In this document: positions 9,396 to 55,064 of the stretch, piece after piece
Layout: each line of letters opens with the position of its first letter
Numbering within the stretch: position 1 is the stretch's first letter
Origin: Ascidia mentula
Lineage: Eukaryota > Chordata > Ascidiacea > Phlebobranchia > Ascidiidae
Direction: 5' to 3'
Assembly: GCA_947561715.1 (NCBI GenBank)
Contig: OX387198.1
Coordinates: 248,001-312,000 of the forward strand
Length of the DNA stretch: 64,000 nt
Position numbers and translations under genes: made by a program
Notes under the pieces: model-generated
Told to the model about the DNA's origin: nothing
The model's input: the letters and a program-made list of their open reading frames with translations, nothing else
Database searches by the model: none

Positions 9396-10320
9396 GCATT
9401 GTGACGTCACATAGCCATGGTGTGAAGTAAACATGATGGAAAACTTTGTACAGTTTTACTTGAAGTAAAAACAAATATTGATGATTTGTGCAAATATTGT
9501 GTCACTAAATGTGAATTATATCCATGGAATGATTTGTAAATAATGAAAACTGTTATGATATCATTTGAGAATGGGAATACATTAATTTTGTTGAGAAAAA
9601 GTGAGTAAGATTGTTTTCCTTTGTAAGAAACAAGGAAGTTTCATATTGTTTATAACTTGGGATTGTTGGTGGAAATCCTGCCAGGTCAGTTTTCTGCTTG
9701 TTCGAGTAAGTTTTCATCATTTGCCTGCAAAACATGGAAGTGTTGGTTGCGTTTTCTATTAAATAGATGGCTGTTTGTCAAACAGAGATTGAAATACAGA
9801 ATATTCATAACATTTTCAGCCACAAAATAAGAAAGTTTTTCAGAAAAAAGTTTTAAGCTATTAAATTATCAAAGATTAACAAACCCAGGGGATCATGAGA
9901 GGAAAAAATGTTCCAATGAAAAACCCCCAGACCCAGTGGTGGGTCTCAAATATTTTAACATCTGGTTTTCTCATTAGCAGCATGTCATAGTAACCGCGGG
10001 ATTACAATGCAGAAGTGAAACATAGGCCTACACATACACTGGTTAACAACCGGTTCACTTAGGTCGTTAAATATGAAGAACCGGTTTCGACGAACCAGAT
10101 GCATCCCACCACTGCCCGGACCAACATTAGCTCAGGGGCCACAGAGCCATGAAAATCCCTTTAAACAACTACATTAATATTCTTGCAAAAAAACACAGGG
10201 GTGAATGTGGTGTCAGGTATGTTATCTGTTGTTCACCTAAAAATTGTCACTAAAATGTTAGCAAGCAAAATTCCGCGAGGTAATTTTAAACGTAGGGTTG
10301 GACTCATTCTGCCACAAGTG
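9396..10320 (+). other. Non-coding stretch downstream of TPR exon B
   Basis: This is probable 3' UTR and intergenic sequence. It is collinear with 43,068-44,119 of unit 2, except that unit 2 carries a 137-bp hammerhead-bearing insert. No convincing reading frame, RNA gene or inverted-repeat element was found. Confidence 0.5.
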
Positions 10321-35600: not shown

Positions 35601-38600
35601 CGCCTGGACTCTGTCACCACACCCACTGGTTTCGCTATAGCAACACTCAGGTGTAGTGTCTTTTTATAAATGTGTCTTTTAACAATGAGTTTTGACTTTT
35701 AATGCAACCGCCGCCACTGAGGTCTGGTGATGATCTTGTTGAGTATTTCAATACTTTTGAATCGTACTGCGAAAGTATCGAAGCGACGGACCAGGTTAAA
35801 CAGCATTTGTTCCTGGCATTCATAACAACGTTATGAAATAAGCAATAGAGGATGGTGATGGTAACCTCTATGCAATCGAATATAAAGAACTTAAGAAACT
35901 TGCCTTGCGCCATGAGACCAGTGCTGGACGATCAGAGAGGCAACGCGAAGCACTCACAAGATGCGTGTAATTGCCCTGGGAAACGGGACGCTTATTTGTT
36001 TACGTCCGCTCAGTAATACGGCGTACAGCAGTAATTCGAAGGCTGTCCTGAATAGCGAAGTACTATATAACACTACTAAGAGGGATACAGGGCTGGTTTT
36101 TGGTGGATACCATCCCGGTATTGACGTCACGTTGCAATCAAAAGAACCTGGAATGGGAGCGGTATTAAATAAGGTGGGAAGAATTGAGATGCAACCAAAC
36201 AACATGTCTAGGAACTGACAACCTGAGGCCGGAATCAAAGAACTGAAACACGCAAATCTGTCGCTGTTCCGCCCAGACCATACATCTGAGCGTAAAAGCC
36301 GCAACTGCTGTGGTCGTGTTGGGCTGTCCTTGGTAAATATGCTATTAACCATCGGCCGAAAGGACAAAGAGAGCGTGTGGTTTTGTTTCCAGATGTGCCA
36401 TGTCGGGACAGTTGACGGAACACCGACGAAAGTTTGAACCACATGTAACACATCACCAACCAGCAGCAACAGAGCCCGTTGTCCCGCGTTTCCTCCCACG
36501 TTTTGTGACGTTCACAATCGGCAAAGAATTGATGTTTCTATGCTTGACGTCATATCGCCGCAAATATGTACAGAGTTATGCGCATATCGCTACCCCTCTT
36601 CACCGACTTACGGAAAGGGAAGGAGTTTCGTATGGGATAAATGTTACCATAACGAATTCCTTTTACATGTGCGCCAGGAAACAAAGTTGAAAAAAATATT
36701 TTCATGTTAGGAATTAAATTTTTTCGCGTAGTTTAATTAAATTGTTTCTGTTTCAGATGAAAACATCGACCTAAATTCCCTGATAGAAAAATACGCGGAT
36801 TTGTTGGAAAAGCAAAAATATCCTGAAGCAAATGAAACAAGAAACCAACTTTCAAGGTCACTTGAAGGTGTTGGGGCAACTGCAGATGATTTGAAAAGAA
36901 CTGGAGATAAAAAGAGAGAAGAGGGAAAATGTTTGGAATCGATTTTATTGTACGAACTTGGAGGTGAATTTTATTCAAGGCATCACGATGACGTGAGAGA
37001 GGTTGAAGGTGTGGTGGATTGTGTTGGGGGTTTGAGATGGACATGCAAAAATTTGATGTAAACATCGGATTTGAATAAAAAACTTGAAAACAAACGAATA
37101 ATTCGTGATCACGTGATCCCACTGATGGAAACGATGAGACTCAAAATACAAACTATTCAAAACGTGGAAGAAGGAATAAAATGTGTAAATGAAGTGTGGT
37201 GTTTGCACTGGATTGAATTGAGTCAGGATTTCATAGGAGATGATTCGTCGAGGGAATCAACAATTAAACTTGGACTTGAAATGATGAGGAAACAGTTTGG
37301 TGAAAACTCAGCAAAGCATGAAGTGTTCGGAACTTTGTTACACAACCTTGTTGTTGTTTGCATGGAAACAAATCGACTGAATGAAAGCATGGATTTTTAT
37401 CAAAAATCAATCCAAGCTTACAGAATGGCAACAGACATAACTGAAGTGGACAGAAAGCGGGAGATTGAAAGAAGTGAAAACATTTTACGACGAATTCAAC
37501 CAATGTTAAGTCAGTGCAATTATTGATAGATTTTATTGAGAATTACTAAATCATTAGTTTGTATATTCACTCACTAATATCATTTCAGTCCATGAATGCT
37601 TTATGTTAAGAATGTGGGGTTGGAATTTTTAAACATGCTTTGAGACAGGGATTTGTCAAATACATGAAGTTTTGTTGCCAATTCCAACATTGTCCTCCAC
37701 AGTAATTTTCATGCCTGATAATTTGCCACAAGAATTTGTTGATCTGTTGAACGGCATAAACAGGGGTTGATTTAATACATTTGGTTTGGTGTTGTAACTA
37801 TGACATAACTACATATGATGAAAGTTGTCCTATTATAGGTAAAATAATTTCTTGTTGCAGCAATTCGAGGTACGGAAGAGCTTGCAACCACCTCCCATGA
37901 CATCACTCACCATCGGCCATCTAGTGGTGAATCAAACGAGCAGATCCTGCAGAGAACGGTTCACCAAACAGGTAACCAGAGATTTCTATCATAAAGTAAA
38001 ATGGTATAATACTGACTCCGTGCATTTAAATTTGGCTCATCACCTCAAGCTTGCCTTAAATCAGTGACAGCCACTGTAACCACTACTGGTAAGTCTTCCA
38101 CGTTATACAAGCTGGGTTTGGGATCGCTTTCATAAACAAAATCAAAATGAGTGGCGTCGTTAAAAATGTATAGGGACAACCTCAAGGCTGCAACAAAATG
38201 TCCAAATATGTAAATAAAGTAAGTCATGCTTTGTCCCAAGTCCATCCCATGTATTATAATTACTATTGACTAAAACAAGGGTTGGGATTGTATAAGCCAG
38301 GGGAGAAGAACATCCTCACTAGGCTCAATTCCCGAAATAATTCCGTAACAACTTTGCGAGCACGCCTGGACCATGTCACCACACCCACTGGTTTCGCTAT
38401 AGCAACACTCAGGTGTAGTGTCTTTTTATAAATGTGTCTTTTAACAATGAGTTTTGACTTTTAATGCAACCGCCGCCACTGAGGCCTGGTGATGATCTTG
38501 TTGAGTATTTCAATACTTTTGAATCGTACTGCGAAAGTACCGAAGCGACGGACCAGGTTAAACGGCATTTGTTCCTGGCATCCATAACAACGTTACGAAA

Positions 38601-41600
38601 TGGGCAATAGAGGATGGTGATGGCAACCTCTATGCAATCGAATACAAAGAACTTAAGAAACTTGCCTTGCGCCATGAGACCAGTGCTTATAACGGGACGC
38701 TTATTCGTTTACGTCCGCTCAGTAATACGGCGTACAGCAGTAATTCGAAGGTTGTCCTGAATAACGAAGTACTATAAACACTGCTACGAGGGCTACAGGG
38801 CCTGTGTTTGGCGGATACCATCCCGGTATTAATCAGGTACGAGCAAAGCTTGGTTGCAGTCGCTCAAGTCGACTTGGACTCGGTGCTCAGCCCAGAGGTC
38901 ACGTTGCAATCAAAAGTACCTGGAATGGGAGCGGTATTAAATAAGGTGGAAGAATTGAGATGCAACCAAACAACATGTCTAAGAACTGACAACCTGACGT
39001 CGGAATCAAAGAACTGAAACACGCAAATCTGTCGCTGTTCCGCCCAGACCATACATCTGAGCGTAAAAGCCGCAACTATGCCGTGGTCGTGTTGGGCTGT
39101 CTTTGGTAAATATGCTGACCATCGGCCGAAAGGACAAAGAGAGCGTGTGGTTTTGTTTCCAGATGTGCAGATGTCGGGACAGTTGACGGAACACCGACGA
39201 AAGTTTGAACCACATGTAACACATCACCAACCAGCAGCAACAGAGCCCGTTGTCCCGCGTTTTCTTCCACGTTTTGTGACGTTCACAATCGGCAAAGAAT
39301 TGATGTTTCTATGCTTGACGTCATATCACCGCAAATATGTACAGAGTTATGCGCATATCGCTACCCCTCTTCACCGACTTACGGAAAGGGAAGGAGTTTC
39401 GTATGGGATAAATGTTACCAGAAAGCTTTTGGTGATCTCAAGGAACGTTTACCTGCGGCGCCCATTTTGCAATACCCAGATTTCGCACGGCCGTTTGTGG
39501 TCGATACAGACGCGTCCGATACCGCTGTTGGATGTGTTTTGTCACAGAACGTGGACGGTAAGGAGAGCGTAATTGTCTATGTGAGTAGATCCCCAAGCCG
39601 TGCCGAAAGAAACCATTCCACGACGCGAAAAGAGTTGCTTGCTCTCTGCGACCAAACTGTATCGATGTTATCTTTTAGGTAGGAAGTTTTCCTGTGAACC
39701 CAGATCTTTCTTCTCTTCTACGTTGGTTGCGGCAGTCGAAGGAACTTTACTGACAATGTGGGTGGAATATCTTTCCGCGTTTGGCTTTGACCTTGAACAC
39801 AGGCCGAGAGTAAAACATCGAAACGCTGATGCGCTGTCACGTGTACACGACAGTGACGTAGACCCAAACTTCCTATACAAGTTGACGACAGAAGCGGTCG
39901 AGATGCAGGTGGTGGAGTTTAAGACATTATTTTGCTACAGCCTAGAAGACATTGCGGCACATCAAGAAAACTACGATGATTTCTCCGTTGTGATGGATTG
40001 GTTAAAAAAGTTGTGCGCTCCAAATTCAAAACCATACGACGTCACCCCCCTTTAATTCGATATTTGGTGGTCGCTCTTCCCTCGCCTGAGGGAAAAGGGA
40101 AAGGTTTTGTGCGTGGAAACTGATTCTGGGGTAGAGATCGTACTTAAAGTAGTTCTCCCTCCAAGTTTAAGACAAAGGGGTTATGGTTGCACTACACGAT
40201 AACGTGCTCAGAAGTTGTCATCTAGGCATCACGAAGACCCTCTCGGAAGTTACCAAAAGGTTCCACTGGTACAGGTGGCACGAAGACGTAGACCAGTTTT
40301 GTCGAAGATGCAGCGATTGTCAATATATAATAAAAAACCCGCACAAAGGACACAGACACCATTGTTCACTCGACGGAAAGTAGCTCAATGTAACGAGTGG
40401 AGGTCGATGTGGATGGTCTTCTACCATTCACGCGACCGGGGTACGAATTTCCAAAGTAATTTCTTTTCCGAGTTATTGAGATTATTGGGATCAAAGAAAA
40501 CCCGAATCACCGAATGTCGACCCGCGTGCAACGGTGGAAATACGCAACGATATAACCATTATAACAATGCTACGTAAATATGTAAACGAGACGAACACAA
40601 ATGGGACGAAGCACTACCTGCGGTGGTTGCGGCTTACAACGCCCACGAAAGTACCGGCTTCCCATCCCACACGATTTGACAGAGCGATCACTACGACTGC
40701 CCGTAGATTTGGTCGGGGGAACGTCGCGAAGGAGAATGAGATATCGGAAGCTGAAATCCATCGTTTACGCGATTGTTTGGAGCTGACGGAGAAATTTGTG
40801 CGAGAAAGTCTCCGACTCCACCGCCGGCGGATGAGAAGTCGATCGGAGACAACATTGGACGCCACATTCAGTCGGTGATCGCGATTTAATCCAGCGGTCC
40901 CTGTGGGAAAATGCAAAAAGCTGCAAAGCGCTTCCGAAGGACCCTACTACGTTGTCGAAGTGTTCGGCCCCGTTAACTATATCATCGAGGACGCGGCTGA
41001 AAAAAGCAAACGTTTCACTTGAATAGGATGAAGCCGACAACCGATATCTTCCCGGCAGTGGACGAAAGTGTGCGAACCGATCAGGAAGATGAAGTCGGGA
41101 GGAAAAGTTTGGATACCGAGCAAGCGTCCCGCCGATTGGAAGACCCTTTGTATAATAACCTACCAAGCAGGCCGGTGCGGGAACGCAGCCAAACAAAGTT
41201 CTGTCCATCGCCAGAAACATAATCCCAGCGGAGTGGGACAGTCTTTAGGTTGGAGGGAATGTTGTGAAAAACGACCCACCACACTAATACTTCTCTTCAT
41301 TCTTACTTCTGTTTTGTGAATTTTTTATTTGAACTTTATTGTAAATGCACACAACGCCCCGCACTATTCCTTGTTATGTCGGTTTTCTTCACTTGCGTTT
41401 CATCCAATTTCCCTTCGGTTGATGATTATTTTTGCACTGTACAGTGGAAGTTTGCCACGTTACGCTCTAGTGATTACGTTTCGCTCGTTGATTGGTTAAT
41501 TGGCTTGTGACATGAGGCGACTAGGCCTAAAAAGTGGATGACTTGCTAGTCTTGGGCATTGTGTTGTATGTAGCGATTTGTTGGTGTTTGGAATGCGATT

Positions 41601-43067
41601 TAATTGAAGTAAGTCGCCCATTTATTCAACCCAGTATGAGGTATTTAGGTTTTGATGGTGAGCCGTTATTTCAGGGTCCGGGCCTTTTACGAATCAGTAA
41701 GGCAGCGTTGGGGTAAAGATCTTATTTGAGGTTCTAGGGTTGTGTTTGGGGGTCGCCGCTCAAATCCTCAGTAGGCTCAATTCCCGCCCTGCCGAAATAA
41801 TTCCGTAACAATTACATAAAATACAAACCATAGATATCGTAGTGCTCTGCTATGGGGTTTTCTAGAATAACCTCCCATTTAAAACATTCTTAACTTGTAA
41901 TGCTACAGATTATACTGCATCGTTTTGTTGATAAAAATACACATACGTCAGCAACATGAAGCAAATACTTTTACCTTCAGTGTTTATTGATGCAGGTTAT
42001 TTAGTAAACCTACACAAGTGATATATCTATGGTATATTAGTGTAAAAAATATTGCTGCAAACGAAAACGGTAATCTACCAGTTCTTACCAACATAAGTTA
42101 GAAGGTAAATTTAACGAAAACCCCATATTTAAAAAATATATACTTGTTGTTCTCTAGCGCCACTAATGTTTTCCGCCATAACGATGACCTTTGACATGAA
42201 CGCCAGGAAACAAAGTTGCAAAAAATATTTTCATGTTAGGAATTAAATTGTTTCGCGTTGTTTAATTAAATTGTTTCCGTTTCAGATGAAAACATCGACA
42301 TTAATTCCCTGATAAAAAAATACGCGGATTTGTTGGAAGAGCAAAAATATCCTGAAGCAAATGAAACAAGAAACCAACTTTCAAGGTCACTTGAAGGTCG
42401 TGGGGCAACCGCAGAAGATTTGAAAACAACTGGAGATGAAAAGAGAGAAGAGGGAAAATGTTTGGAATCGATTTTATTGTACGAACTTGGAGGTGAATTT
42501 TATTCAAGGCATCACGATGACATGAGAGGGGTGGAAGGTGTGGTGGATTGTGTTTGGGGTTTGATGCTGACATGCATAGATTTGATGAAAACATCGGATT
42601 CGAATCAAAAACTTGAAAACAAACGAATAATTCGTGATCACGTGATCCCACTAATGGAAACGATGAGACTCAAGATACAAAATATTCAAAACGTGGTAGA
42701 AGATTTAAAATGCATAAATGAAGTTAATTGTTTGCACAGGATTGTATTGAGTCAACATTCAATCGGAGATTATTCGTCGATGGAATCAACAAATAAACTT
42801 GGACTTGAAATGATGAGGAAACAGTTTGGTGAAAACTCAGCAAAGCATAAAGTGTTCGGAATTTTGTTAATCGTTCTTGGTTTTGTTGGCGAGGAAACAA
42901 ATCGACTGAATGAAAGCGTGGATTTTTATCAAAAAGCAATCCAAGCTTACAGAATGGCAACAGACATAACTGAAGAGGACAGAAAGGAGTGGATTGAAAT
43001 AAGTGAAAACAATTTGCAACGAGTTACAGAATTGTTACAACACAGTAGGCATTGTGTCGTCACATAG
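23635..43067 (+). CDS. Multi-exon gene with polar N-terminus and alternative TPR 3' exons
   Basis: Exons (all GT-AG, phase-matched): 23,635-23,652 (MEIHSD, the start); 26,308-26,371; 26,691-26,813; 28,016-28,117; 28,542-28,652; 28,856-28,936; 29,482-29,592; then, after an intron with a Polinton fossil, 34,002-34,753 (TPR, stop), 35,090-35,200 (linker), 36,757-37,526 (TPR, stop), 37,861-37,971 (linker) and 42,285-43,067 (TPR, stop). After the second exon every junction is phase 1, so inner exons can be skipped or repeated without a frameshift. The N-terminal part is Ser/Gln/Glu-rich and probably disordered; the C-terminal part is a TPR scaffold. Each TPR exon has its own stop, so I infer alternative terminal exons. 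The function is unknown. Joining the 5' and 3' sets is an inference from phase and order; transcripts were not available. Confidence 0.62.
24988..26080 (+). other. 1.1-kb intronic segment absent from unit 2
   Basis: This lies inside the first intron of the TPR gene. Unit 2 joins the sequence matching 24,987 directly to that matching about 26,083 (near 61,466), with a 2-3 bp overlap (TCC) at the joint, so a deletion in unit 2 is the simpler reading. It includes an inverted, diverged relative of the TTAA MITE at about 25,650-25,830 (recognisable in reverse by the GCCAGGGCGATTTTCAGCGTG segment). No gene is seen. Confidence 0.55.
26308..26371 (+). CDS. TPR-gene exon 2, unit 1
   Basis: This is a 64-bp exon between TGTGCAG and GTAAAG, entered in phase 0 after MEIHSD and left in phase 1. 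It reads NPKLQSDKFGEHEQVDGSES plus N. The unit 2 copy (61,687-61,750) differs by one residue (K to E). It converts the frame to the phase-1 register used by all later exons. Confidence 0.6.
26691..26813 (+). CDS. TPR-gene exon 3, unit 1
   Basis: This is a 123-bp symmetric 1-1 exon between AAATTTTAG and GTAAAA. It reads EVTARNGESEIPSVVGASPE, then TTTVDKVQQQGNVEQSSPQE and T. It is acidic and Gln/Ser-rich with no fold recognised. Unit 2 (62,071-62,193) keeps the length and frame with three amino-acid changes. Confidence 0.62.
28016..28117 (+). CDS. TPR-gene exon 4, unit 1
   Basis: This is a 102-bp symmetric exon, acceptor TTTTAAAG, donor GTTAGG. It reads ETSGRDRSSALDDVTDDQLS, then SESTSGQTDHLQHT. 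An upstream AG (near 27,980) would run into a stop, which favours this acceptor. The unit 2 copy is 63,820-63,921. It is polar and probably disordered. Confidence 0.55.
28542..28652 (+). CDS. TPR-gene exon 5 (basic FLRKIF module, first copy)
   Basis: This is a 111-bp symmetric exon between TTTGTGTAG and GTAATT, reading DAKKSKPSFLRKIFPRFGKK, then DSPNHPGNIKNDHSTLD. The centre is a basic/aromatic SFLRKIFPRFGKK patch, which could be an amphipathic membrane- or partner-binding motif (inference). Exon 29,482-29,592 is a clear duplicate of it, including about 10 bp of the following intron (GTAATTCTAATTTATTATTG). Confidence 0.65.
28856..28936 (+). CDS. TPR-gene exon 6, unit 1
   Basis: This is an 81-bp symmetric exon between TTCACAAG and GTACAT, reading GPDGGQSSSGVKVQQQSHAT, then ENRQQEQ. 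It is Gln/Ser-rich and resembles the KVQQQGN...SSPQE part of exon 3, so it may be an old duplicate of that exon. It lies between the two FLRKIF exons. Confidence 0.58.
29482..29592 (+). CDS. TPR-gene exon 7 (basic FLRKIF module, second copy)
   Basis: This is a 111-bp symmetric exon between AATTGTGCAG and GTAATT. It reads DSTRSKSSFLRKIFPRFGKK, then DSPNHPGNIKNVRSTLN and is a near-copy of exon 5, differing mainly at its N-terminal end. It is the last exon before the Polinton-bearing intron; the next phase-1 acceptor on this strand is the TPR exon at 34,002. Confidence 0.63.
29957..33600. mobile_element. Polinton (Maverick) fossil, unit 2 copy
   Basis: This fossil lies in the intron between the last FLRKIF exon and the first TPR exon. 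Parts, left to right: a terminal inverted repeat (about 29,957-30,005), a retroviral-type integrase piece on the plus strand (about 30,100-30,740, with an ERFNRTLKDRVWRYL segment), a capsid-family piece on the plus strand (about 30,740-31,330, with an FVHTDIVQSRSVGN segment), and the N-terminal and exonuclease parts of family B polymerase on the minus strand (about 31,256-32,679). It is much shorter than an intact Polinton, is broken in many places, and is plainly not active. It is shared with unit 1, hence older than the duplication. Confidence 0.85.
34002..34753 (+). CDS. TPR terminal exon A, unit 2
   Basis: This is the counterpart of 3,045-3,796. It opens in phase 1 after TTTAATTTCAG and reads DVNTKIYVDLLKKQKYSEA to TGA at the end (RRIQPMLSQCNY). 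The frame is intact over about 250 codons. The TPR repeat VLLHNFGVVCMEKNRLNESV with YQKAIQAY is well formed. Many differences from unit 1 cluster in the middle (EVWSLHRIELSQLSIGDYSS versus the unit 1 sequence), hinting at exchange with exon B rather than simple drift. Confidence 0.75.
35090..35200 (+). CDS. 37-codon linker exon, first copy in unit 2
   Basis: This symmetric phase-1 exon between TTGTTGTAG and GTAACC reads AIRGTEELATTSRDVTHHRP, then SSGETNEQIVQRTVHQT. It has two codons more than the unit 1 copy, in frame. It would join 5' exons to the next TPR exon (36,757) or to the second linker. Confidence 0.68.
35530..36655 (+). mobile_element. Ty3/gypsy fossil, partial copy in unit 2
   Basis: This is the left part of the same Ty3/gypsy fossil found at 4,570-8,164 and 38,300-41,815. 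The gag-like part and the front of the pol region are represented; the right-hand part is missing and the next sequence is the intron just before TPR exon 36,757. It is broken. It is best explained as one product of the exchange that created the extra TPR exon. Confidence 0.82.
36757..37526 (+). pseudogene. Hybrid TPR exon (B front, A back), unit 2, with nonsense codon
   Basis: The start matches exon B (after TTTCTGTTTCAG, DENIDLNSLIEKYADLLEKQ), while the end and downstream flank match exon A (RRIQPMLSQCNY, stop, then the exon A 3' flank and a linker exon). It therefore looks like the crossover product of exons A and B. At 37,060-37,062 the frame has TAA where sister exons have AAA (TTGATGTAAACATCGG versus TTGATGAAAACATCGG), so the TPR part would be cut off. 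It is otherwise open. Splice sites are intact, so inclusion would give a short C-terminus. Confidence 0.78.
37861..37971 (+). CDS. 37-codon linker exon, second copy in unit 2
   Basis: This symmetric phase-1 exon between TTGTTGCAG and GTAACC reads AIRGTEELATTSHDITHHRP, then SSGESNEQILQRTVHQT. It is the linker that would join 5' exons to the intact TPR exon at 42,285, skipping the hybrid exon. Confidence 0.68.
38300..41815 (+). mobile_element. Ty3/gypsy fossil, longer copy in unit 2
   Basis: This is the counterpart of the unit 1 fossil and in the same intronic position. Recognised parts are a gag-like segment (EYFNTFESYCEST, about 38,490-38,580), the RNase H region (DTDASDTAVGCVLSQ, about 39,500-39,545), the DALSRV tether region (about 39,825), an integrase zinc-binding segment (about 40,185-40,380) and an integrase tail (to about 41,100). 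The short outer repeat recurs near 41,767-41,815. It is broken in many places. It was present before the large duplication because unit 1 has it at the matching site. Confidence 0.85.
42285..43067 (+). CDS. TPR terminal exon B, unit 2
   Basis: The exon opens in phase 1 after TTGTTTCCGTTTCAG and reads DENIDINSLIKKYADLLEEQ for about 260 codons. The TPR repeat is present (EETNRLNESVDFYQKAIQAY). Near the end a 2-bp difference from unit 1 (TTACAACACAGTAG versus TTACAACAGTAG) shifts the frame and replaces the LLQQ end by LLQHSRHCVVT before the stop at 43,065-43,067. This is the last recognised exon of the gene that begins at 23,635. A LLHNLGDV-type core residue run is altered here (ILLIVLGFVGE), so the TPR may be drifting. 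Confidence 0.75.
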   Translation, partial: DENIDINSLIKKYADLLEEQKYPEANETRNQLSRSLEGRGATAEDLKTTGDEKREEGKCLESILLYELGGEFYSRHHDDMRGVEGVVDCVWGLMLTCIDLMKTSDSNQKLENKRIIRDHVIPLMETMRLKIQNIQNVVEDLKCINEVNCLHRIVLSQHSIGDYSSMESTNKLGLEMMRKQFGENSAKHKVFGILLIVLGFVGEETNRLNESVDFYQKAIQAYRMATDITEEDRKEWIEISENNLQRVTELLQHSRHCVVT

Positions 43068-43880
43068 CCAATGTGTGAAGTAAACATGATTGAAAACTTT
43101 GTACAGTTTTACTTGAAGCAAAAACAAATATTGATGATTTGTGTAAATATTGTGTCACTAAATGTGAATTATATCCATGCAATGATTTGTAAATAATGAA
43201 AACTGTTATGATATCGTTTGACAATGGGAATACATTAATTTTGTTGAGAAAAAGTGAATAAGATTATTTCCCTTTGTAAGAAACAAGGAAGTTTCATATT
43301 GTTTATAACTTGGGATTGTTGGTGGAAATCCTGCCAGGTCAGTTTTCTGCTTGTTCGAGTAAGTTTTCATCATTTGCCTCCAAAACATGGAAGTGTTGGT
43401 TGTGTTTTCTATTAAATAGATGGCTGTTTGTCAAACAAAGATTGAAATACAGAATATTCATAACATTTTCAGCAACAAAATTAGAAAGTTTTTGAGAAAA
43501 AAGTTTCAAACTATTAAATTATCAAAGATTGACAAACCCAGGGGGCATGAGAGGAAAAAATGTTCCAATGAAACACCCCCAGACCCAGTGGTGGGTTTCA
43601 AATATTTTAGCATCTGGTTTTTTCATTAGCAGCATGTCATAGTAACCGCGGGATTACAATGCAGAAGTGAAACATAGGCCTACACATGCACTTGTTAACA
43701 ACCGGTTCGCTTGGGTCGTTAAATACCAAGAACCAGTTCCCACGAACCAGATGAATCCCACCAATGCCCAGACCAAAATTACCTCAGGGGCCACAGAGCC
43801 ATGAAAATCCCTTTAAACAACTACATTACTATTCTTGCAAAGAAACAGGGGTGAATGTGGTGTCAGGTATGTTATCTGTT

Positions 43881-44017
43881 TGTGTATAAGCTGCAGACAG
43901 ATGGCCACTGTTTCGACCTAAAAGGTCTCATCAGTGCAGCTGGTGTGACTATTAGACGAACTTTGCAGACCAAACGGCCAAGCAAAGACTTCCACAAGAC
44001 AGACCAAACGGCCAAGA
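43881..44017 (-). mobile_element. 137-bp ribozyme-bearing insertion, unit 2 only
   Basis: The insert is flanked by a perfect 12-bp direct repeat (ATGTTATCTGTT at 43,869-43,880 and 44,018-44,029). Unit 1 has the empty site with a single copy (about 10,217-10,228). No inverted ends and a 12-bp duplication suggest reverse-transcription-type insertion. It carries a complete hammerhead ribozyme on the minus strand. Penelope-like elements and retrozymes are known to carry type I hammerheads; 5'-truncated Penelope copies have duplications of this size (family knowledge). The CAAACGGCCAAG word occurs twice inside it. Confidence 0.8.
43889..43941 (-). ncRNA. Type I hammerhead ribozyme, complete consensus
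   Basis: On the minus strand the 53 nt read: stem I AGCUGCA; core CUGAUGA; stem II GACCU-UUU-AGGUC; core GAAA; stem III CAG-UGGCCAU-CUG; cleavage site UC; stem I UGCAGCU. Stem I pairs over 7 bp without mismatch, stem II over 5 bp with G10.1-C11.1, stem III over 3 bp plus the A15.1-U16.1 pair, and the cleavage triplet is GUC. Every conserved core position is satisfied. Stem I is the open one, so it is type I. It would self-cleave between C43,896 and the following U (minus sense, 43,895). Activity was not tested, and the short loops leave tertiary contacts uncertain. Confidence 0.88.
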
Positions 44018-44123
44018 ATGTTATCTGTTGTTCACCTAAAAATTGTCACTAAAATTTTAGCAAGTAAAATTTAGCGAGGTAATTTTAAACCTAGGGTTGG
44101 GCTCATTCTGCCACAAGTGTTAA

Positions 44124-45850
44124 GCACAAGTACTGTATACATGGGTCATTGGGCAATAAGCTACACTATATAATTAACAAACTACAAATAATTACCTTCT
44201 AACCTGGGAATTACAAAATGAACCAGTTTGTGTTTGGATAATAAACATCACAATGCTGTTCACATTCAGTTTGACAACATTTGTATATCAAGCATCCTTG
44301 CATGCAAAGAACCTGCAGCAAAAATATAAGTTACAAATGGTTGCTGAATAAGTTATGTTGATTCCAACAGAAAAACTATGCTCTTCAATTTAGAACAAAT
44401 ATGACAACAGCTATGGCTGGCACACAAGGTGATAATTTGATGAAACACCAAATAATTTATGAATTTATGTTTCAATGCCATATATCTGACCCCTGAAAAA
44501 AGGCTGCTGTCAAACCTAAGGTTACTCGATCAATTTAATTCCACATTAATAAAAGTACAACATAGTTTATGACTTCACAAAGTACATATAGAATCCGGTA
44601 CCACTTAACATACTGCGTCACACGATATCGCTTGGTTGCAAGCTTATGAGGTCCCAATTTGTGTTGTCTGATCTCAATGTTAAGGGTATGTCGTCTATAT
44701 AGAAAAATGTACAGAGTTAATTAGGTTTGAGCTCCACCTCACTAGGAAAAGAGGACTTACTGCAAAGAAGACGGTAATAAACATTACGTTACTGACAAAC
44801 ATATTACAATTTAAAATAGACTTCTTGCATAAAGTTAACGTACTTTCTTCTTCCAACGTTTGTTCTGCCACACAGAAAGACTTTATCAGGGTTTGGTACC
44901 AATCTCATTCAGTTTGACAACATTTGTATATCAACCATCCTTGCAAATAATCTGCAGCAAAAACATAAGTTCCAAAAGTTGAATAAAATGGTGGATTCCA
45001 ACAGAAAAACTATGTACTTAAAAACAAACTATGACAGGGTTATGGCACAAGAGGTGATAATTTACCAATTTATGTTTCTATGCGAAGTCAAATCAAATCA
45101 TGTTTATTTTGCGAAAAAAAGCAACTACGCAGATGAACAATATACAAGGAAATGAAATGGCATGGGTACCGATAAAACCATAAAGGTTATCGAGTCAAGT
45201 GCCCATAGAAGTCATTAACATTATGAGATAATTTGTATAAACTGACCTGCTGTGTTCAAAAGCAGTCCTGAAGGTAACTTGCACATTTAAACCGAAAACG
45301 CTTGATCATGTTTGGGACAAAGCCGTCTGCTTTTTTGAAGCAAAAGTTTTATCAAATATGTGCTTTGATTTGGAATATATAACCTCTCTTTCAAAGTTAG
45401 TGAAATATCCATTCTTACCCTAATGATTTAACATTGACTGCTCCCGATTTGCATTCTGAGGAAAAATGATGTACTCATCAAGTCAGTGCATTTATTTTCA
45501 TGTATATTAGCAATTTGAAACATAAAACATTATTTTTTTTGGAATACCAAATAAATCACAAAAAAGTATATAACTGTTTCAACAGGAATCATATATATGT
45601 AAGTTGCATATGATATGTATATGCACCATTGATAGAAGAGGCTCTTCTGGAACCCGAGTACTTAGTACCATAAAGTATTGATGCGCTAATAGAATATTTA
45701 ACACAATAACAGTAAATTAAGTTAATTTATCGTGTAATAATTTGTCAACTACTAACTCTTTACACAAACGCAAACTTTTAAACAAGGGTGCCATCTTATC
45801 TGAATAGCTTTGGGGAAACCCCACCTAAATTGTTGGAATTGGCGAAGGGA
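44124..45850 (+). other. Intergenic stretch, unit 2
   Basis: This is collinear with 15,554-17,320 of unit 1 but with about 550 bp extra near 44,280-44,830; the words CAGTTTGACAACATTTGTAT and CATCCTTGCA occur on both sides of the extra part (44,264 and 44,915), consistent with an internal duplication. No gene, RNA or bounded element was recognised. Confidence 0.45.
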
Positions 45851-45862
45851 ATGGATTTCTGT

Positions 45863-48125
45863 CACTGATCTCTATAAACACTGGATTGCGCATCTCACTG
45901 TGACGCATGAATGATTTTTGAAGCAAATTGAAAGACGCGGCCGCCATCTTGGAAGGTCCAACTTCCCGTGCAGAAGGCATTGGAGAGGGTGATTTTAGGA
46001 TTAGAAAAAGTAGTATAGCGGTAATTTACGGATTATCCCTAATTTCTACCGTAGAGGAGTATGTAAGCATTGTTCAAAAATATGGATTTCTAAAGTTGCT
46101 GTGCAGTTGGCTGCGGAAAAAGAAAACAGAAACAATCGTGGGGTAAGCACACATCACAATCAGCATTGGAAAGGTAGTCGAAAATATTTTAAAGTGGTTA
46201 AAATTGTACCATACATACTTTAAAAAGCTAGTTGGAAGTAAAATGATCGATTTTATTGTTAAAAACAGATTTCCCTCTAACGAAGTACAAAGAAATATGT
46301 TTTTTTTTACAAGACTGGATACATTCATTTATCAAGATGGCTAGAAGGAAAGAATATATTGTTCCTATAGGCTTATTATTTTTTTCCCCAAAAAAATTTA
46401 GAAAATAATTGGCTCCAGTCCACAATATCGTTATGCAGTATTCTAAATTTAAAAGGAAATTGGCAGGAAAAGGGCCAGCCTCCGCAATCTTTAACAAATA
46501 AGAAATGTCTAGGTGACTGCACAAAGTTCATGGCCTTGTTCTTAGACCACCATGTTTTAATCCAAACCAAACAGAAACAAGTCCTATAAAAACAACAGGT
46601 AATATTTACAGTTTTGCTTTAAAAAAACTAACTTGATGTATTTTTTTGGGTTAGGTTTTTATGTTTTACTTTAGTGAGCTACCCAAACATAGCCTACACT
46701 TAGCCAATATAGAACCTAAAGTTACAGAGAAATTGGTGTAGCCTGCTAAGATCAGAAATTGCTAAAAAAATGTAAAGCAACAATTTTTCACACTAATTTT
46801 GGGGATTTTAAGATTTATGATTCTCTTACTTTGCTATTGAATCTTCAGATTAAAAGGGCCTTGCGCTGGCCATGTACATTTTCTGGGAAAACTGCATTCA
46901 CGGGGCATGTTTGCTGTTGGCATTTTTGTGCAATAAAAAAATGTTTTTTGTTTATATCATAACATTCTGTGGAGATCTATCTGCAGCTCACACAATTCTG
47001 TGGGGATATTGTATTTTTTGTGCTTGGTGAACTGGATCATTTTCTTTTTGTATCATTCCTTCTGTAGCTGGTGGTTTTGTGAATAAACAAACAAGTCTGT
47101 AGTTGTTTCATTGCTTTCTTTTAATAGCCAGTAAAATATTACAAATTTATATCACAACTTTCAAGACGGGAAAAATCTGTTAGATAATGAAAGAGAATAT
47201 GTAAAACAATATATAGATAGATACAGTAAGTAGTGACTTGATGTTTAGCATGCTACCTTGCAGATACATGACAATGTATATTCTTTACATACAATGCTGT
47301 GGTTATGGATGTCATAGTTTTAAAAGGATTGCTGTTTCTTCGATACTACAAATCATTACCACAATGTTACAAACCTAAGAACATATAAATATACATGCAT
47401 TTACTGAAGATTGCCAAAAACAGCAGTTTAGTCAGATCTAGAACATGTAAATTGTAAAACACATCATCTTCTCAGAAGAAAAACAGCCATTCTTGTTGGT
47501 ATTCTTTTGCAATAGAACTAGTCCACAACAAAGTAAAATTCAAATATAATGCGATTACTTATAAATCCTAAATTGTCGTTTGGTACCAGTGCCGGTAGTA
47601 GAGGTATTAATTAGGTTTTGAAAAGGAATTTTTCTCAGTTGTTGTATTTCTGTCGTGGCCTACAGGTGCTTGATCTTGTTTGATCTAACTTCTGTCCTCT
47701 ACACTTGGACAGGATTCCGGTTGTTCAACAGGAATCGATTCAGTCCAAAATGGTCTCCAAAGTTTATTTTCCTGTAAACGGATGTAATTTCAATTACTAT
47801 TAGCTATTTCCTTACATACAAACCATAACCTGTTCTTCACGGTCACGACATAATACTGCAGTCCACAGCTTTGCGGATGTAAAATCACATTTGCAAACAA
47901 TTTTACATGCAACGAGCACTTGACGCATGAACAGCGAAGTCTTGTTTATTTTTCACACCTATCATTTTCATATTAAACAACCACAATGTCATTTACCCTT
48001 TCAAATTGACCGCACACTAATACTAACAAACCAGAAAGTTGGACCTTCCAAGATGGCGGCTGCGCCAATCAAATTGCTTCAATTTTGAGCGGAGTTGCGC
48101 TATCCAGTGTTCATAGAGATCAGTG
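45863..48125. mobile_element. 2.3-kb DNA transposon with ~110-bp inverted repeats, unit 2 only
   Basis: ATTTCTGT is duplicated at 45,855-45,862 and 48,126-48,133 (8-bp target duplication). The ends are imperfect inverted repeats of about 110 bp beginning CACTGATCTCTATRAACACTG. Both repeats contain GCCGCCATCTTGGAAGGTCCAAC, whose complement includes AAGATGGCGGC, a match to the YY1 consensus. Unit 1 has no element at the site (17,330). The interior has no transposase frame that I recognise; the plus frame at 45,928-46,146 starts inside the inverted repeat and is probably chance. An 8-bp duplication is shared by P, hAT and others, so the superfamily is open. Confidence 0.82.
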
Positions 48126-48339
48126 ATTTCTGTCGACCGAATATTAATCACTAACATCATTAAAAGTTGGCATTATTTCGCTCTTAACTCTTTTCACAAC
48201 TATGCGGACCAAACTAAGCTTATACCATCAGAAAACTTGTATAATATCTTTCAAACCACACCAAGATTGGTAAACTGGCTTAAGGACTTATACGGCAATT
48301 AAACCAAAGAAAATTCTGTTTTCAAGGTCCTCTGTAATA

Positions 48340-48745
48340 ATGCACCTTCCAAACTTTTCGCTTGTTTCCCAAAAACTGTTACTGGGTCTTGTGACTTACA
48401 TAGGGACCTAATATTCTTCAATAAGAATTATTGCCCCTGGATGAGACAGTACATGGCATGGATTTGTGGAGTCTCCTGGAAGATCTTGTGATTGCTTAGG
48501 CAATTTATATTCAGCAACTAACTTTGGTGTTGGATGAGTCTTAGTGATATGCCCAAAACTGGCTTAAATTCGCCCTAGCAACAAGACATGCACATGTGCT
48601 CATTCAACCGTAAAATTGACCACCATGCATCACTGACTGCTTTGTGACGTGCTACCTACCATTGTGACAGAGGATTGAACACATGCGTCCAAGTTTTCCA
48701 CCGGGGAAACTTATTTTAATAGAAATACCAATATGCGTCCTTAAG
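48340..48745 (+). mobile_element. Diverged relative of the TTAA MITE, unit 2
   Basis: This is the counterpart of 17,520-17,946, with the same right end (ACCAATATGCGTCCTTAA) and the CTCATTCAACCG block. The interior is shorter. It is present in both units, so it predates the duplication. Confidence 0.55.
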
Positions 48746-50597
48746 TGTGGGAGAATGGGTAGATGGTAAACTCAGGTCAATTCCACATAACGGTAGCGAA
48801 GAATTTATTTGCATTTCTACACAATACCACGACACTTTGTGTGCAAATATACGACATTACAAACCCACGTGACTCTACACACACGTGCACCGATGACGTC
48901 ACAATGACGTAATAAAGGATTCGACAATTAGTTTAGTGGAAAAACTCTGCAGACAGATTTCACAGTAGGAAAAGTTGTGTTGATTTGGTAAAGATTTATG
49001 TTCAGTGCTTTCAAGTGTGGAGAATTGCAAGAAAAGTCATGAAATGAGGAATTGCACGAAATAAATTGCACTCACCAACAATTACCCTAAAAATTCAAAT
49101 ATTATTCATCTTCTATATTTCTTATAAAAAATAAAACACAATATTTGCCATCCCCCGATAACGTGCAGATAATAAAAACGTTCTACATCTATTGTGACGC
49201 TTAAATATGACGTCACGGGGTAAGTTGAAATTATTCTCAAAAAAACGAAAGTAACAAAAAAACGTCAAAATGGACGACCACCGAATTTGTATGAGGTAAG
49301 AACGTATTCCCACCAAACACTACCCAGTCTTATTCACACAGATCGACAGAAACCGTGACGTCACAACATGATCACGTGATCGTTTGTCACGTGGTTGGTT
49401 GAACACAGATTACACAGTGAGCTATCGATGAAATTACACAAGAACAAGGAAACTATACAAAGGGTTGGGGGAGAAGCAGATTCAACAAAGTTTCCACTGT
49501 TTATCTCGAGTTTACAAAACACAAACTCCACGAACATCTTCTTTTACAACAACAAGTTATTTTAAAAACCTGCACGTCAACAACAATAGGTTGGTGAAGT
49601 TTAACAAACTGTCTTCACATAAACATATTTCTAACAACACGCAAACCGACTTACTACCACAGCACCAATCTATATGCGTCGTGGCAAGATCAACAGCACC
49701 ATCCAGCGGTAGGTATAATCGTATCAAACCAACCGCATGGTGGGGTTTCATCTGTCCGCGCGTCTCGCAGCAGCAACGCAAGAGAAGAGACAGAGCACAG
49801 CGTGACGACTTGAATTTGTGTATCGTCACCTCGTCGGTGTTGCGGTCTGTGACGTAACAATAACACATTCAGCGTTTGAAGAAAACCTTATGACGCAACA
49901 AAGGATTCTTACTGTATTCTTCGAGAATAAATATTCCCTTTACTGTGTTGCATTTGCGGATCGTTTTTAACCCGAGGAAAACCTGGGAAAGAAAACACGA
50001 TTTCTATGCCAGCCCACGTGCTTTTCAAGGTCATTTATCTCAAGGTTAATTGCAACAACTTTCAACAACTAAAAACAAATACGAGCAGATTCCACAAGAT
50101 TAAAAAAATAAAAAAATGTAGTGACGTCACAACAACATGCAAACATTCATTTGTGAAAAAATAAAATCTTCAGCAAAAAAATATAAACTTCTGTCCACCC
50201 ATTATCATCACAAACAACAAACAAAAAGACACAACAACAACAACAACAGGAATAATCGAGTCATGCTATACCTTGTTAACTCCCTGAAATACAAAAGGGC
50301 CGGGAAATTAAACAATAAAAATCACTCACAATTGAAGCAGTTTATCGCGTAATAATTTTACCACCAAGCTAGAAACAACAACAGGTTTTCAACAGTTTTC
50401 GGTTGTAATGTTACAGATTCGGAACACAATTATACAGGTTTGTAGCGTCGTACAACTGCACGCACTGCATCATTTAAATACAATCAGATAATTATGTGAG
50501 AACTTTAAGGTGGAAACTCCAGTGAATATTTAGCAAAGCAACACAAACAGCTCGATTCAATACAGAGGCAGCATTGGATAAAATGACCTCAAGTTAC

Positions 50598-50704
50598 CTG
50601 ACTGTTGATGAACTTTAGATTCACCCCATCCAAAGTGACCTGGAGTAACCCACATTCACCAGTTTTCATGTCTTGGATAGGGAATTCCCCGCCCAATTCC
50701 GGTT
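50598..50704 (-). CDS. MADD: MADD exon [13 protein letters not shown], unit 2
   Basis: This 107-bp exon reads [20 protein letters not shown], then [16 protein letters not shown], almost identical to the vertebrate C-terminal region. Its acceptor (TTGTCAACAG) and donor (GTAACT) are normal. The unit 1 deletion breakpoint falls inside this exon (50,660/50,661), leaving unit 1 with only the part after GEC. Confidence 0.88.
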
Positions 50705-51220
50705 CTGTTGACAATAATTAATGACGTCACTTTTTGTGATGTGGTTCGTTGGCATAGAAATCATATAAACTTAGTTCGCATCTTTATTGTTTTTGTGCCG
50801 GAACATTGAGAGGAAGTGACGTAATTAACAGACGACTCGTTTCAAATAGAAGAATAATGAAGGGGAATCACCGTTATGTCTCGCGGCAGCTTTTTCCATG
50901 GCTTCTTTGACGCAATGATACAACTCCCGACACTGAGTGAAAATAAGAACAAGGAAATTACACTGGGACACAAATTCGTCACCAAACCACAAGACTGTGT
51001 AACATAGAAATCTGTGCGAATGTTAACGGTTACGCATGATCAACCACCTGTTATTATTTGTTATATATTTGAACAGTTGCTAGACAACCTCCAGGGTATC
51101 CATGACAACACCACATTATTGCACAGATTTCTATGTTACATAAGCTTATATGTGGATGAAGTTTGGCGAGGACTCTGTGTTCTGATGTATTTTAACAAAA
51201 CACAAAACACTTGAACTCAC

Positions 51221-51385
51221 TTTCTTGGTGTAAAACTTGTTGAGTTGGGTTTCCTGACCTTTTCGTTGCCACAAGCAGAGAACTTTGGTTTTGGGGCAGA
51301 AAGTCATGTTAATCAACTTCTCCTACCACCACCGTTCACAAATCGTCCCAAACCCGCTTCGTAGGATGATCGCATCGTCGCATAC
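51221..51385 (-). pseudogene. MADD: MADD exon with in-frame stop, unit 2
   Basis: This is a 165-bp exon between GTTAAAAG and GTGAGT. It reads VCDDAIILRSGFGTICERWW, stop, [34 protein letters not shown]. Vertebrate MADD has Tyr at the stop ([20 protein letters not shown]). TAG at 51,323-51,325 is one base from a Tyr codon. The rest of the exon is well conserved, so the stop is recent, polymorphic or a sequencing error. The exon is absent from unit 1, so no second copy is available for comparison. Confidence 0.85.
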
Positions 51386-51575
51386 CTTTTAACATACAAC
51401 AAACTGGATGAGGGAAGCGTAAACATTTTGTGAATCTTTTGGTGAAAATTCGTGCAGGAATTCCTCGTTTACCCAAGAAATCCACAAGCGAAACAAAATA
51501 AACGTTTTGACGTGAAAAAAATTAGGAGATGACGTCACTATAGAATAAAGTCGACGTCATCAAGTAAATAGTAAC

Positions 51576-51752
51576 CTCCATAAACAAAACGTCTCCTGTT
51601 GTGTCGGTTCCAGCGTGGACCACGAATGATTGCTTCCTTATATGGCGACTTCCGATCGCGTTGCCATGGATACCCTGGAGGTTGTCTAGCAACAAATTCA
51701 CTTCCGCACTGTGGGACAACCCCACATGGGACTTCCCCAACAGACGTCGGAC
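51576..51752 (-). CDS. MADD: MADD exon [11 protein letters not shown], unit 2
   Basis: This 177-bp in-frame exon reads [20 protein letters not shown], then [20 protein letters not shown] and [19 protein letters not shown]. It matches the region following the death-domain-like part of MADD. Part of it (CAACCTCCAGGGTATCCATG) recurs at 51,078-51,107 in the intron as a short inverted copy. Confidence 0.88.
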
Positions 51753-51911
51753 CTGAACATAAGAGTTGGTGAAAAACTTGAAGTTGTTAATTTATTTTTC
51801 TACCTTCCGTTTAATGTCGTTGGTTGGGACGTTCATCATCACCATGTATGCGATGAGGTTGTAAAGCATTGTTGACAGAAGTCTGTCCTCGTCGTCCTCC
51901 AACCTCTCTCT

Positions 51912-52355
51912 AATATTTAGTTTTTTGCTTTCAACGAAAATATTTAAGACACAAAATATTCTGAAACTTTAAGCTGGTGTGTTGGTTTGTGTGCGGAACA
52001 CTCAACACCACAGAGTGGAACATGCCATGCTAGTGCGACACCAGGTGGCCATATTTACTCAGATTGAAGGTGGTTTCCAATGCAGCGCCCTCTAGCTGCA
52101 TGATGATTGAATGCTTTCCAGTCCCTTGGTGGCAGCAAAGAAAACAAGTAGGGAAACTTATTGGAAAAGTTTAAACAAATCAAATGTGGAATGGGAGATT
52201 CAGAAGCAAATTAAAAGTTTTCTAACTGGATTTCAGAGAATAAAGATAATAATAATAATAATTTAAATGCACTTATCCCTCACCAATACAAAGACTGCAT
52301 TTAAACAAAGTTTTAATATGAGCTTGTGACATCATAAGGATGCTGTGCACCAAAG
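51912..52355 (+). repeat. 444-bp perfect direct repeat, copy A
   Basis: Identical by eye to 53,028-53,471 (offset 1,116). It begins AATATTTAG immediately beside the 5' end of the MADD exon 51,804-51,909 and ends GTGCACCAAAG. It has no inverted ends, no TG...CA ends and no target duplication, so it is not an LTR. It lies where MADD exons are missing. It could be a very recent local duplication or an assembly error. Confidence 0.9.
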
Positions 52356-53027
52356 ATCATTGGATGAACTTCTTGTAAGAAGTGATTCAACTTAACTGAA
52401 CAATTTAATAAAATTGTGTGTTTTTACCACTGTGGAGAATTACACTCAAAACGTATGCTACAGTTTTAAAAGTTGGTATTTTTAACATTTAAAGCAGATT
52501 CATGCAGAATTATATTGAGTATCGAATATCGCATACACATAGTTTGCATCAACACTAAGCTGATTGTTTAAGTGCAAGAATCACTTTCATCCACATTCAC
52601 ATACTTCGCATTCAATAGTTCACAGTCTGTTAATTTCTACATGTCATGCACTTATGATTAGTTGGATGTTGTTTGCAAGCAGTTGCACAGATTCACAACT
52701 TACCATGTATTTAATCTATCAAAATTAGCTGGTTATCTATTATTGCAAGCTGGAGTATTAAATAAGATTTCCAGGTAGTGATTATGATGAAAGGTTGATT
52801 GATAACCTGTGGCTTGTGTTGCCAGGCAACCGATTAGTTTACAAACCCACATCGAGGCATACATCGGTAAAGTCACAAACAAATACATTGAACACATAAT
52901 GCTACTTGCACTTAATACACAAACATTTCAATTCTAAACTTGTATTTTAAGCAACTTTTTCCTATTCATTGGAAACATTTCATGTGGAAAATATTGTTGT
53001 CAACTTGAAAGGTTGTGATTATTTCAC

Positions 53028-53471
53028 AATATTTAGTTTTTTGCTTTCAACGAAAATATTTAAGACACAAAATATTCTGAAACTTTAAGCTGGTGTGTTG
53101 GTTTGTGTGCGGAACACTCAACACCACAGAGTGGAACATGCCATGCTAGTGCGACACCAGGTGGCCATATTTACTCAGATTGAAGGTGGTTTCCAATGCA
53201 GCGCCCTCTAGCTGCATGATGATTGAATGCTTTCCAGTCCCTTGGTGGCAGCAAAGAAAACAAGTAGGGAAACTTATTGGAAAAGTTTAAACAAATCAAA
53301 TGTGGAATGGGAGATTCAGAAGCAAATTAAAAGTTTTCTAACTGGATTTCAGAGAATAAAGATAATAATAATAATAATTTAAATGCACTTATCCCTCACC
53401 AATACAAAGACTGCATTTAAACAAAGTTTTAATATGAGCTTGTGACATCATAAGGATGCTGTGCACCAAAG
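53028..53471 (+). repeat. 444-bp perfect direct repeat, copy B
   Basis: This is the second copy of the repeat at 51,912-52,355, separated from it by 672 bp without recognised genes. Perfect identity contrasts with the few per cent divergence between the two large units, so it arose later than the units or in assembly. Confidence 0.9.
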
Positions 53472-54818: not shown

Positions 54819-55064
54819 CTTATTAGCATCCAGATCAACTTTCCAAACGTCGGATGGAAAATGAAACTTTTTCTTTGCGCCAAAGAATGAACTTGGGACC
54901 CCGATGACGTACGGGGTCGGGGCAAGAAGAAGTTGCTCGGAACCTGGCATACACTGGGGTAGAAGGGGAATCACCGGAAACATGTATTGTAGGGGGTAGA
55001 GCATGCTGATGAGAGCCATGATGGACATCGAGAGTGCATTGTAATCCCGGGATACCAAGACAAC
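54819..55064 (-). CDS. MADD: MADD central DENN exon, unit 2
   Basis: This 246-bp exon reads [20 protein letters not shown], then [20 protein letters not shown] and [17 protein letters not shown], then [11 protein letters not shown]. It is the most conserved stretch of the DENN catalytic module and very close to human MADD ([20 protein letters not shown]-type). Acceptor and donor are normal. It is absent from unit 1, whose copy therefore cannot have exchange activity. Confidence 0.9.

What the first reader, a model, noticed from the sequence alone, without database searches (positions are those of the whole stretch)
43889..43941. Complete type I hammerhead ribozyme on the minus strand
All core positions (CUGAUGA, GAAA, GUC cleavage triplet, A15.1-U16.1, G10.1-C11.1) and three perfect stems are present in 53 nt. 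The chance of such a match at random is negligible. Unit 1 lacks the insert, so the ribozyme arrived recently. Hammerheads of this type are known from Penelope-like elements and retrozymes; the carrier here is only 137 bp, so it is either a truncated copy or a very small ribozyme-bearing retroelement.
Basis: partly seen in the sequence, partly recalled or inferred. Interest (0 to 1): 0.9.

Follow-up and report, generated by a model that had tools for sequence, protein, structure and literature searches.

The report
Sea-squirt retrozyme fragment with hammerhead ribozyme
This is a cut-short copy of a tiny mobile element with a self-cutting RNA motif in a sea squirt, and the way its many copies sit in the genome suggests that they are written from RNA circles by the enzyme of another retrotransposon family, Penelope-like elements.

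Summary
The hammerhead at 43889-43941 (minus) is real in sequence. It lies in a 137-bp insert with a perfect 12-bp target-site duplication; the empty site stands at 10219-10230. The host is the ascidian Ascidia mentula. The insert is a truncated copy of a 285-nt unit of metazoan retrozyme type; its core motif occurs 2,376 times. Many insertions are tandem units in two arrays pointing apart. Of 29 two-ended insertions with a duplication of 11 bp or more, 28 start at site A on one side and site B, ~30 nt further, on the other; none is A/A or B/B. Penelope-like elements (PLEs) of the same genome show a like offset and 12-13-bp duplications in 7 of 9 two-armed insertions examined. Two adjacent internal start sites are the published signature of a PLE reverse transcriptase. 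Within an insertion, variants lie in every pass and both arms or in one pass, hardly ever in a subset, as expected of one circular template. A new member of a known kind, with genomic evidence on who moves animal retrozymes. Ribozyme activity, circles and helper are not shown directly; Rfam hits are sub-threshold and stem II shows no covariation.

The parts
43889..43941 (-). type I hammerhead motif: stem I 43941-43935/43895-43889, CUGAUGA 43934-43928, stem II 43927-43924/43918-43915 with loop 43923-43919, GAAA 43914-43911, stem III 43910-43908/43900-43898 with loop 43907-43901, predicted cleavage between 43896 and 43895
   Evidence: read; scan and random control; unit positions u285=43896, u1=43895
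43881..44017 (-). 137-bp insert, truncated retrozyme copy primed at site A (first templated base u15 = 43881)
43879..43995 (-). 117 bp identical to the 285-nt retrozyme unit (u186 to u17 through the cleavage junction); 43879-43880 are also part of the target-site duplication (2-nt microhomology)
43966..43982 (-). first copy of a 17-bp segment repeated at 44000-44016: read as the reverse transcriptase jumping back on its template and copying it twice (inference)
44000..44016 (-). second copy of the 17-bp segment, last part of the cDNA
43869..43880 (.). target-site duplication, left copy ATGTTATCTGTT
44018..44029 (.). target-site duplication, right copy
10219..10230 (.). empty site in the duplicate segment

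Best explanation
The finding is a one-ended, truncated insertion of a 285-nt non-LTR retrozyme of Ascidia mentula, moved by a Penelope-like reverse transcriptase. Cycle: genomic arrays are transcribed; the hammerhead cuts the transcript into 285-nt monomers (inferred from sequence); they are joined into circles (inferred from the insertions). A PLE protein (reverse transcriptase plus GIY-YIG nuclease) makes a staggered cut in AT-rich DNA, leaving 3' ends about 12 nt apart on the two strands (inferred from the duplications). One strand's 3' end primes cDNA at site A (u14-17 for most) and the other at site B (u40-49), both in one predicted hairpin just 3' of the cleavage site. Each cDNA runs along the circle, at times several times round, and the two are joined in the middle, mostly over a few shared bases. 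The result is a fold-back array with duplicated target. The window copy comes from A only: the enzyme copied u15 back to u186, slipped on the template and stopped.
For: Empty site and 12-bp duplication. Exact duplications of 11 bp or more in 44 of 64 elements against 1 of 380 mismatched-flank controls. End rule: of 47 elements (of 65) with a duplication of at least 11 bp, one mismatch allowed, 28 are two-ended A/B, 0 A/A, 0 B/B, 1 odd, 18 one-ended (9 A, 9 B); no 3'-inward layout in 65. First templated base u14-17 in 29 of 37 A ends and u40-49 in 37 of 38 B ends; microhomology mean 1.64 against 0.59 in swapped-flank control. PLEs of the same genome: of 9 two-armed insertions examined, 7 have a 12-13-bp duplication and one arm about 33-41 nt longer than the other; in 2 (L030, L031) no duplication was found. 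The main family's ORF carries RVT_1 and GIY-YIG. Neighbouring GIY-YIG matches within 6 kb are -,+ 19, +,- 0, +,+ 5, -,- 1 (from the 134 matches). Published in vitro work: a PLE protein of Anolis cuts and extends both strands and starts at two adjacent internal sites, the interval being the 'tail'. Single template: in 10 insertions of about two units or more, 20 variants fixed in all passes, 0 in a subset of more than one, 65 in one pass; in 23 insertions of 350 bp or more, 33 fixed (29 seen in both arms), 3 in a subset, 156 in one pass. Most arrays read across the cleavage junction, so self-cleaved linear monomers cannot be their template.
Against: Ribozyme activity is not shown: sub-threshold Rfam scores, non-native minimum-energy fold, no stem II covariation. 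Uncut multimeric transcripts could also be read across the junction, and the Anolis PLE inserts RNA without ribozyme cleavage in vitro. The helper is inferred: retrozyme and PLE share layout, not evident sequence at the start sites. The PLE hairpin is not better than shuffled sequence (z -0.75). One-ended insertions may hide a short second arm that my search missed. Both samples were chosen by sequence: C1 sites by an intact stem II motif, the others by best match. Outside the 47, one element is B/B by my cut (L074, 55/36, no duplication found).
Confidence: 0.8

Rival explanations
1. Same retrozyme moved by PLE machinery, but the template is an uncut multimeric transcript of a genomic array, not a circle.
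For: Templates with a dead hammerhead are still inserted by the Anolis PLE protein in vitro; reading across the cleavage site fits uncut RNA as well as circles.
Against: Variants are fixed through all passes and both arms or seen in one pass, hardly ever in a subset; older arrays carry many one-pass differences (29 in L086) that an uncut transcript would hand on. This is indirect: an uncut transcript of a young, uniform array would look the same.
Confidence: 0.2
2. Fold-back arrays arise by self-priming (snap-back) of one cDNA rather than priming from both target strands.
For: Self-priming, on an antisense template, was proposed for head-to-head PLE copies of Adineta vaga (passages).
Against: Snap-back copying would end the second arm where the first began (A/A) or run into target DNA; instead the second end lies ~30 nt away at B in 28 of 29 cases, and ends of both classes show target microhomology.
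Confidence: 0.07
3. The hammerhead is inactive and plays no part in present spread.
For: Rfam sub-threshold, alternative fold, no covariation.
Against: Core complete; 24 other matches are identical to the window copy over 117-118 bp in a list limited to 40 scored candidates; the 25-nt core pattern occurs 2,376 times with 0 in the reversed control. Identity alone shows youth, not selection on the ribozyme.
Confidence: 0.08
4. Chance match to the hammerhead consensus.
For: None beyond the weak Rfam scores.
Against: 0 comparable matches in 30 random windows; it is part of a repeat family.
Confidence: 0.01

Closest known systems
Metazoan non-LTR retrozymes (Acropora millepora, Mytilus, axolotl; Cervera and de la Pena 2020, PMC7229834: abstract, results on coral, mussel and axolotl, and discussion read)
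   Same: Type I hammerhead once per short tandem unit (285 bp), GC 0.467, no sizeable ORF, thousands of motifs, duplications longer than 4 bp, PLEs in the same genome
   Different: Fold-back arrays, two fixed cDNA start sites and the one-template pattern are described here; the words 'inverted' and 'rolling' have 0 occurrences in that paper's main text. Host is a tunicate; expression not tested.
Penelope-like elements with tail (Poseidon of Anolis, Frangieh et al. 2024, PMC11167929: parts 1 and 2 of 4 read, that is abstract, main text, start of methods; Penelope of Adineta vaga, PMC3846280: passages seen)
   Same: Two adjacent internal start sites 30-40 nt apart, both target strands cut and extended, AT-rich target, head-to-head inverted copies, hammerhead upstream of the start sites
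   Different: The retrozyme has no reverse transcriptase or nuclease and a unit about ten times shorter; the published start sites did not differ between strands, while here each two-ended insertion uses one of each
Plant LTR retrozymes (PMC4918200: search listing only; features as described in PMC7229834)
   Same: Non-autonomous, hammerhead, circular RNA intermediate
   Different: Type III hammerhead, LTRs, 4-bp duplications
Newt and salamander hammerhead satellite repeats (as described in PMC7229834)
   Same: Type I hammerhead in tandem units of about 330 bp
   Different: Amphibian stem III is weaker and works best as a dimer

Membership tests
Metazoan non-LTR retrozyme | type I hammerhead, core complete | tested here: met
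Metazoan non-LTR retrozyme | match to a hammerhead covariance model at curated threshold | tested here: not met
   not named as a defining feature in the parts of PMC7229834 that I read
Metazoan non-LTR retrozyme | canonical loop 1-loop 2 tertiary contacts | not tested
   no 3D modelling; the published mussel retrozyme lacks most of the conserved nucleotides too
Metazoan non-LTR retrozyme | tandem units of 150-450 bp | tested here: met
   285 bp; (the family, not the window copy)
Metazoan non-LTR retrozyme | GC below 50%, no coding capacity | tested here: met
   GC 0.467, longest ATG-to-stop 46 aa in the tandem unit
Metazoan non-LTR retrozyme | target duplications longer than 4 bp | tested here: met
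Metazoan non-LTR retrozyme | no LTR, PBS or PPT | tested here: inconclusive
   the layouts show tandem units, no LTR-flanked body; PBS and PPT not searched
Metazoan non-LTR retrozyme | linear and circular RNA in tissue | not testable with these tools
   no RNA data
Metazoan non-LTR retrozyme | PLEs with hammerhead-like motifs in the same genome | tested here: met
   the PLE motif has one extra base at the foot of stem II and no Rfam match, so its activity is open
Penelope-like element (autonomous) | reverse transcriptase with GIY-YIG in the element | tested here: not met
   no ORF over 46 aa in the unit
PLE-type insertion | two adjacent start sites / 30-40 bp tail | tested here: met
   A and B, median offset 30 over the 29 two-ended cases

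The most novel reading that the evidence does not exclude
One RNA circle templates both strands of the target at once: the two 3' ends left by the staggered PLE cut dock on two fixed sites in one hairpin of the same circle, one strand per site, and two reverse transcriptases then chase each other round the ring. This two-sided, one-template priming would be the general mode of PLE insertion and would explain both their 'tail' and their head-to-head copies, with animal retrozymes as its minimal substrate.
Probability: 0.45. Interest if true: 0.8.

Novelty: new member of a known kind. Interest (0 to 1): 0.6.

Why it matters
It was open which enzyme moves animal retrozymes: the 2020 paper names LINEs or PLEs, PLEs as a strong candidate, and a 2020 review states that the repeats show no conserved motif from which the helper could be deduced (passages). 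The end rule seen here is such a signature: it matches the biochemistry of a PLE reverse transcriptase and the layout of PLEs in the same genome, and the variant pattern points to a single circular template. It can be scored in any good genome assembly, so the question becomes testable by computation first.

Tried and rejected
Chance match: rejected. Rfam identification: weak only, and none for the PLE motif. Covariation of stem II on the 44 matches (33 distinct; 31 distinct of equal length tested): 7 fully paired, shuffles mean 7.1, 631 of 1000 shuffles reach 7, so no support. Divergent families as a covariation test: the variant at C71:13350726 (L093) shows no retrozyme beyond a 39-nt weak match and no clear stem I by eye; relatives in L048 and L030 have a broken stem I pair by eye. 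Helper by sequence: the unit finds related copies near some PLEs, not a shared priming sequence. Snap-back model: rejected by the A/B ends.

Rows and cases left aside: of 65 elements, 11 have no direct repeat of 7 bp or more and 7 have one of 7-10 bp; these 18 are outside the end-rule count of 47. One search used 64 of the 65 (one lies too near its locus end). The window copy itself is in the sample (L009, one-ended A). L060's first element (283/B) is counted as odd. L051 and L052 are one insertion duplicated, so 27 of the 28 A/B cases are independent; L056 and L057 also share a flank. Among PLE loci, L037 has an arm that runs off the locus, L032 (88% identical) and L029, L033, L035, L036, L038, L046 show no second arm and were not used; C67, C72, L039, L047, L048, L034, L091, L030 and L031 are the 9 counted. 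Neither the central-junction overlaps nor the PLE duplications have a random control.

Full report
WHAT IS THERE. The minus strand of 43889-43941 spells a complete type I hammerhead. My scan for the architecture finds only this one in the window and nothing as good in 30 random windows. Rfam does not recognise it at its thresholds; with relaxed settings it gives 19.5 bits to RF00008 and 18.0 bits to RAGATH-1-hammerhead on the right strand. The 53 nt alone prefer another fold by 2.3 kcal/mol, so activity must be shown by experiment.

THE CARRIER. The motif lies in 137 bp that interrupt one copy of a segment duplicated about 33.6 kb apart; the other copy has the empty site. The insert is bounded by a perfect 12-bp duplication. 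117 bp of it equal a repeat found over the genome: one search lists 48 matches, with only 40 of 1,642 candidates scored. The 25-nt core with up to two mismatches occurs 2,376 times and 0 times in the reversed control. At other loci the repeat is a 285-bp unit in tandem. The window copy holds 117 bp of the unit plus 20 bp in which a 17-bp piece is copied a second time, which I read as a template slip.

THE HOST. In a 604-bp piece of the mitochondrial contig (19,461 bp), AGA and AGG stand where COX1 has conserved glycines by my own knowledge, which is the ascidian code. The contig C1 is 27,920,005 bp long, exactly the longest scaffold of Ascidia mentula kaAscMent1.1, whose mitochondrial genome is 19.46 kb and which has 9 chromosomes (passages of PMC11109543). 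The held genome has 195.8 Mb in 79 contigs, the published one 197.0 Mb in 95 scaffolds.

HOW COPIES SIT. I took 60 loci: 20 around best matches, the window copy among them, and 40 of the first 41 sites listed on C1 (the other one was already held as L023). They hold 65 elements. Exact target duplications of 11 bp or more occur in 44 of 64 elements with usable context, against 1 of 380 when left and right flanks of different elements are paired; the commonest length is 12. The 47 duplications of 11 bp or more are 76.9% A+T, flanks 61.9%. 33 of 65 elements are two-ended in layout: a left array in one direction and a right array in the other, with the RNA's 3' side outward (19 of 42 in the C1 sample, 14 of 23 in the other); the inward layout occurs 0 times in 65.

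THE END RULE. Number the unit from the base after the cleavage site. Of 47 elements with a duplication of 11 bp or more (one mismatch allowed), 29 are two-ended: 16 have A on the left and B on the right, 12 the reverse, 1 is odd, none is A/A or B/B; 18 are one-ended, 9 from A and 9 from B. Two of the 28 are one duplicated insertion. Outside the 47 there is one B/B by my cut (L074, 55/36). The offset is 30 nt at the median, 20-40 in the 28. The first templated base is u14-17 in 29 of 37 A ends and u40-49 in 37 of 38 B ends; microhomology with the target averages 1.64 nt against 0.59 for swapped flanks. The arms overlap by 1-9 bases where they meet in 19 of 23 simple cases, without a control. 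A and B lie in the two arms of a predicted hairpin (z -2.79).

THE PLE LINK. The genome has many GIY-YIG genes (134 matches from 150 scored of 382 candidates). One family forms an array of 2,870-bp units, two pointing left and three right, nearly identical, with a 12-bp duplication. Its ORF carries RVT_1 and GIY-YIG. I examined 9 two-armed PLE insertions. Five are of this family (C67 array, C72:15016129/15020126, L039, L047, L048): all five start 36-41 nt apart on the two sides by alignment ends (up to 44 for C67), with 12-bp duplications. L091 and L034, not matching that family's sequence, have 12- and 13-bp duplications and one arm about 40 and 33 nt longer. L030 and L031 showed no duplication. 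Neighbouring GIY-YIG matches within 6 kb are -,+ 19, +,- 0, +,+ 5, -,- 1. A hammerhead-like motif with a palindromic stub for stem III lies about 60 nt upstream of the first start site of the main family; Rfam does not list it. Frangieh et al. found that the Anolis PLE protein cuts and extends both strands and starts at two adjacent internal sites, which define the 'tail'. The retrozyme shows the same signature. Its priming sequence is not evidently that of the PLE family examined, so the exact helper is open; most other PLE loci could not be fetched.

ONE CIRCLE. In 10 insertions of about two units or more, 20 variants are present in every pass, none in a subset larger than one, and 65 in one pass. 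In 23 insertions of 350 bp or more, 33 variants are fixed, 29 of them seen in both arms; 3 lie in a subset, in L051 and L052, which are one old duplicated insertion; 156 are in one pass, 57 of these within 15 nt of an arm end. The fixed variants say that both arms were read from one kind of monomer; the one-pass variants are read as later decay or end noise. As most arrays cross the cleavage junction, that monomer was joined end to end: a circle is the simplest reading, an uncut transcript of a very uniform array the rival.

WHAT IS SHOWN AND WHAT IS INFERRED. Shown by sequence: motif, insert, duplication, empty site, repeat family, end rule, variant pattern, like layout in PLEs. Inferred: self-cleavage, circularisation, PLE protein as the enzyme, both strands priming on one RNA.

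NOVELTY. Searches of the held literature show metazoan retrozymes, PLE tails and head-to-head PLE copies as known; no held paper has both 'retrozyme' and 'twin priming', and none of the 15 papers listed (of 3,224) for tunicates with hammerhead or retrozyme terms has 'retrozyme'. Subscription papers are not held, so this is no proof of absence. I file it as a new member of a known kind with new mechanistic evidence.

Noticed in passing
window 2-10230 against 31170-43880 and 15550-28198 against 44120-64000: Large tandem segmental duplication, pieces 81-97% and mostly 90-97% identical, with four ORFs of 238-245 aa and a shorter one (LLNNLGFVCEETNRLNESVDLCKKAIQA...) that look like tetratricopeptide-type repeat proteins by eye; not searched against families.
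   Followed up: partly
window 2900-2963 and 33883-33935: 16-bp tandem repeat CTGTAGTGACGTAGTA in both copies of the duplication.
   Followed up: no
window 15356-15479: Three copies of a 41-bp unit, 98% matches.
   Followed up: no
window 51912-52355 and 53028-53471: 444-bp direct repeat, 100% identical, 1116 bp apart; perhaps recent terminal repeats or a local duplication.
   Followed up: no
window 28972-29140: Weak stretches (72-73%, E 0.6-2.2, so possibly chance) of retrozyme hammerhead and stem I in both orientations.
   Followed up: no
L048 499-729, L030 944-994, L016 9-132, L023 949-1077: Divergent relatives (70-86%) of the retrozyme unit; in L048 the part u13-56, the start-site region, is better kept (86%) than u83-282 (70%).
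   Followed up: partly
G000:C71:6914075-6964445 and 16669063-16678477: GIY-YIG matches spaced by 4.6 to 21.5 kb, all on the plus strand, unlike the -,+ pairs of other PLEs; perhaps a different, longer element or a gene cluster.
   Followed up: no
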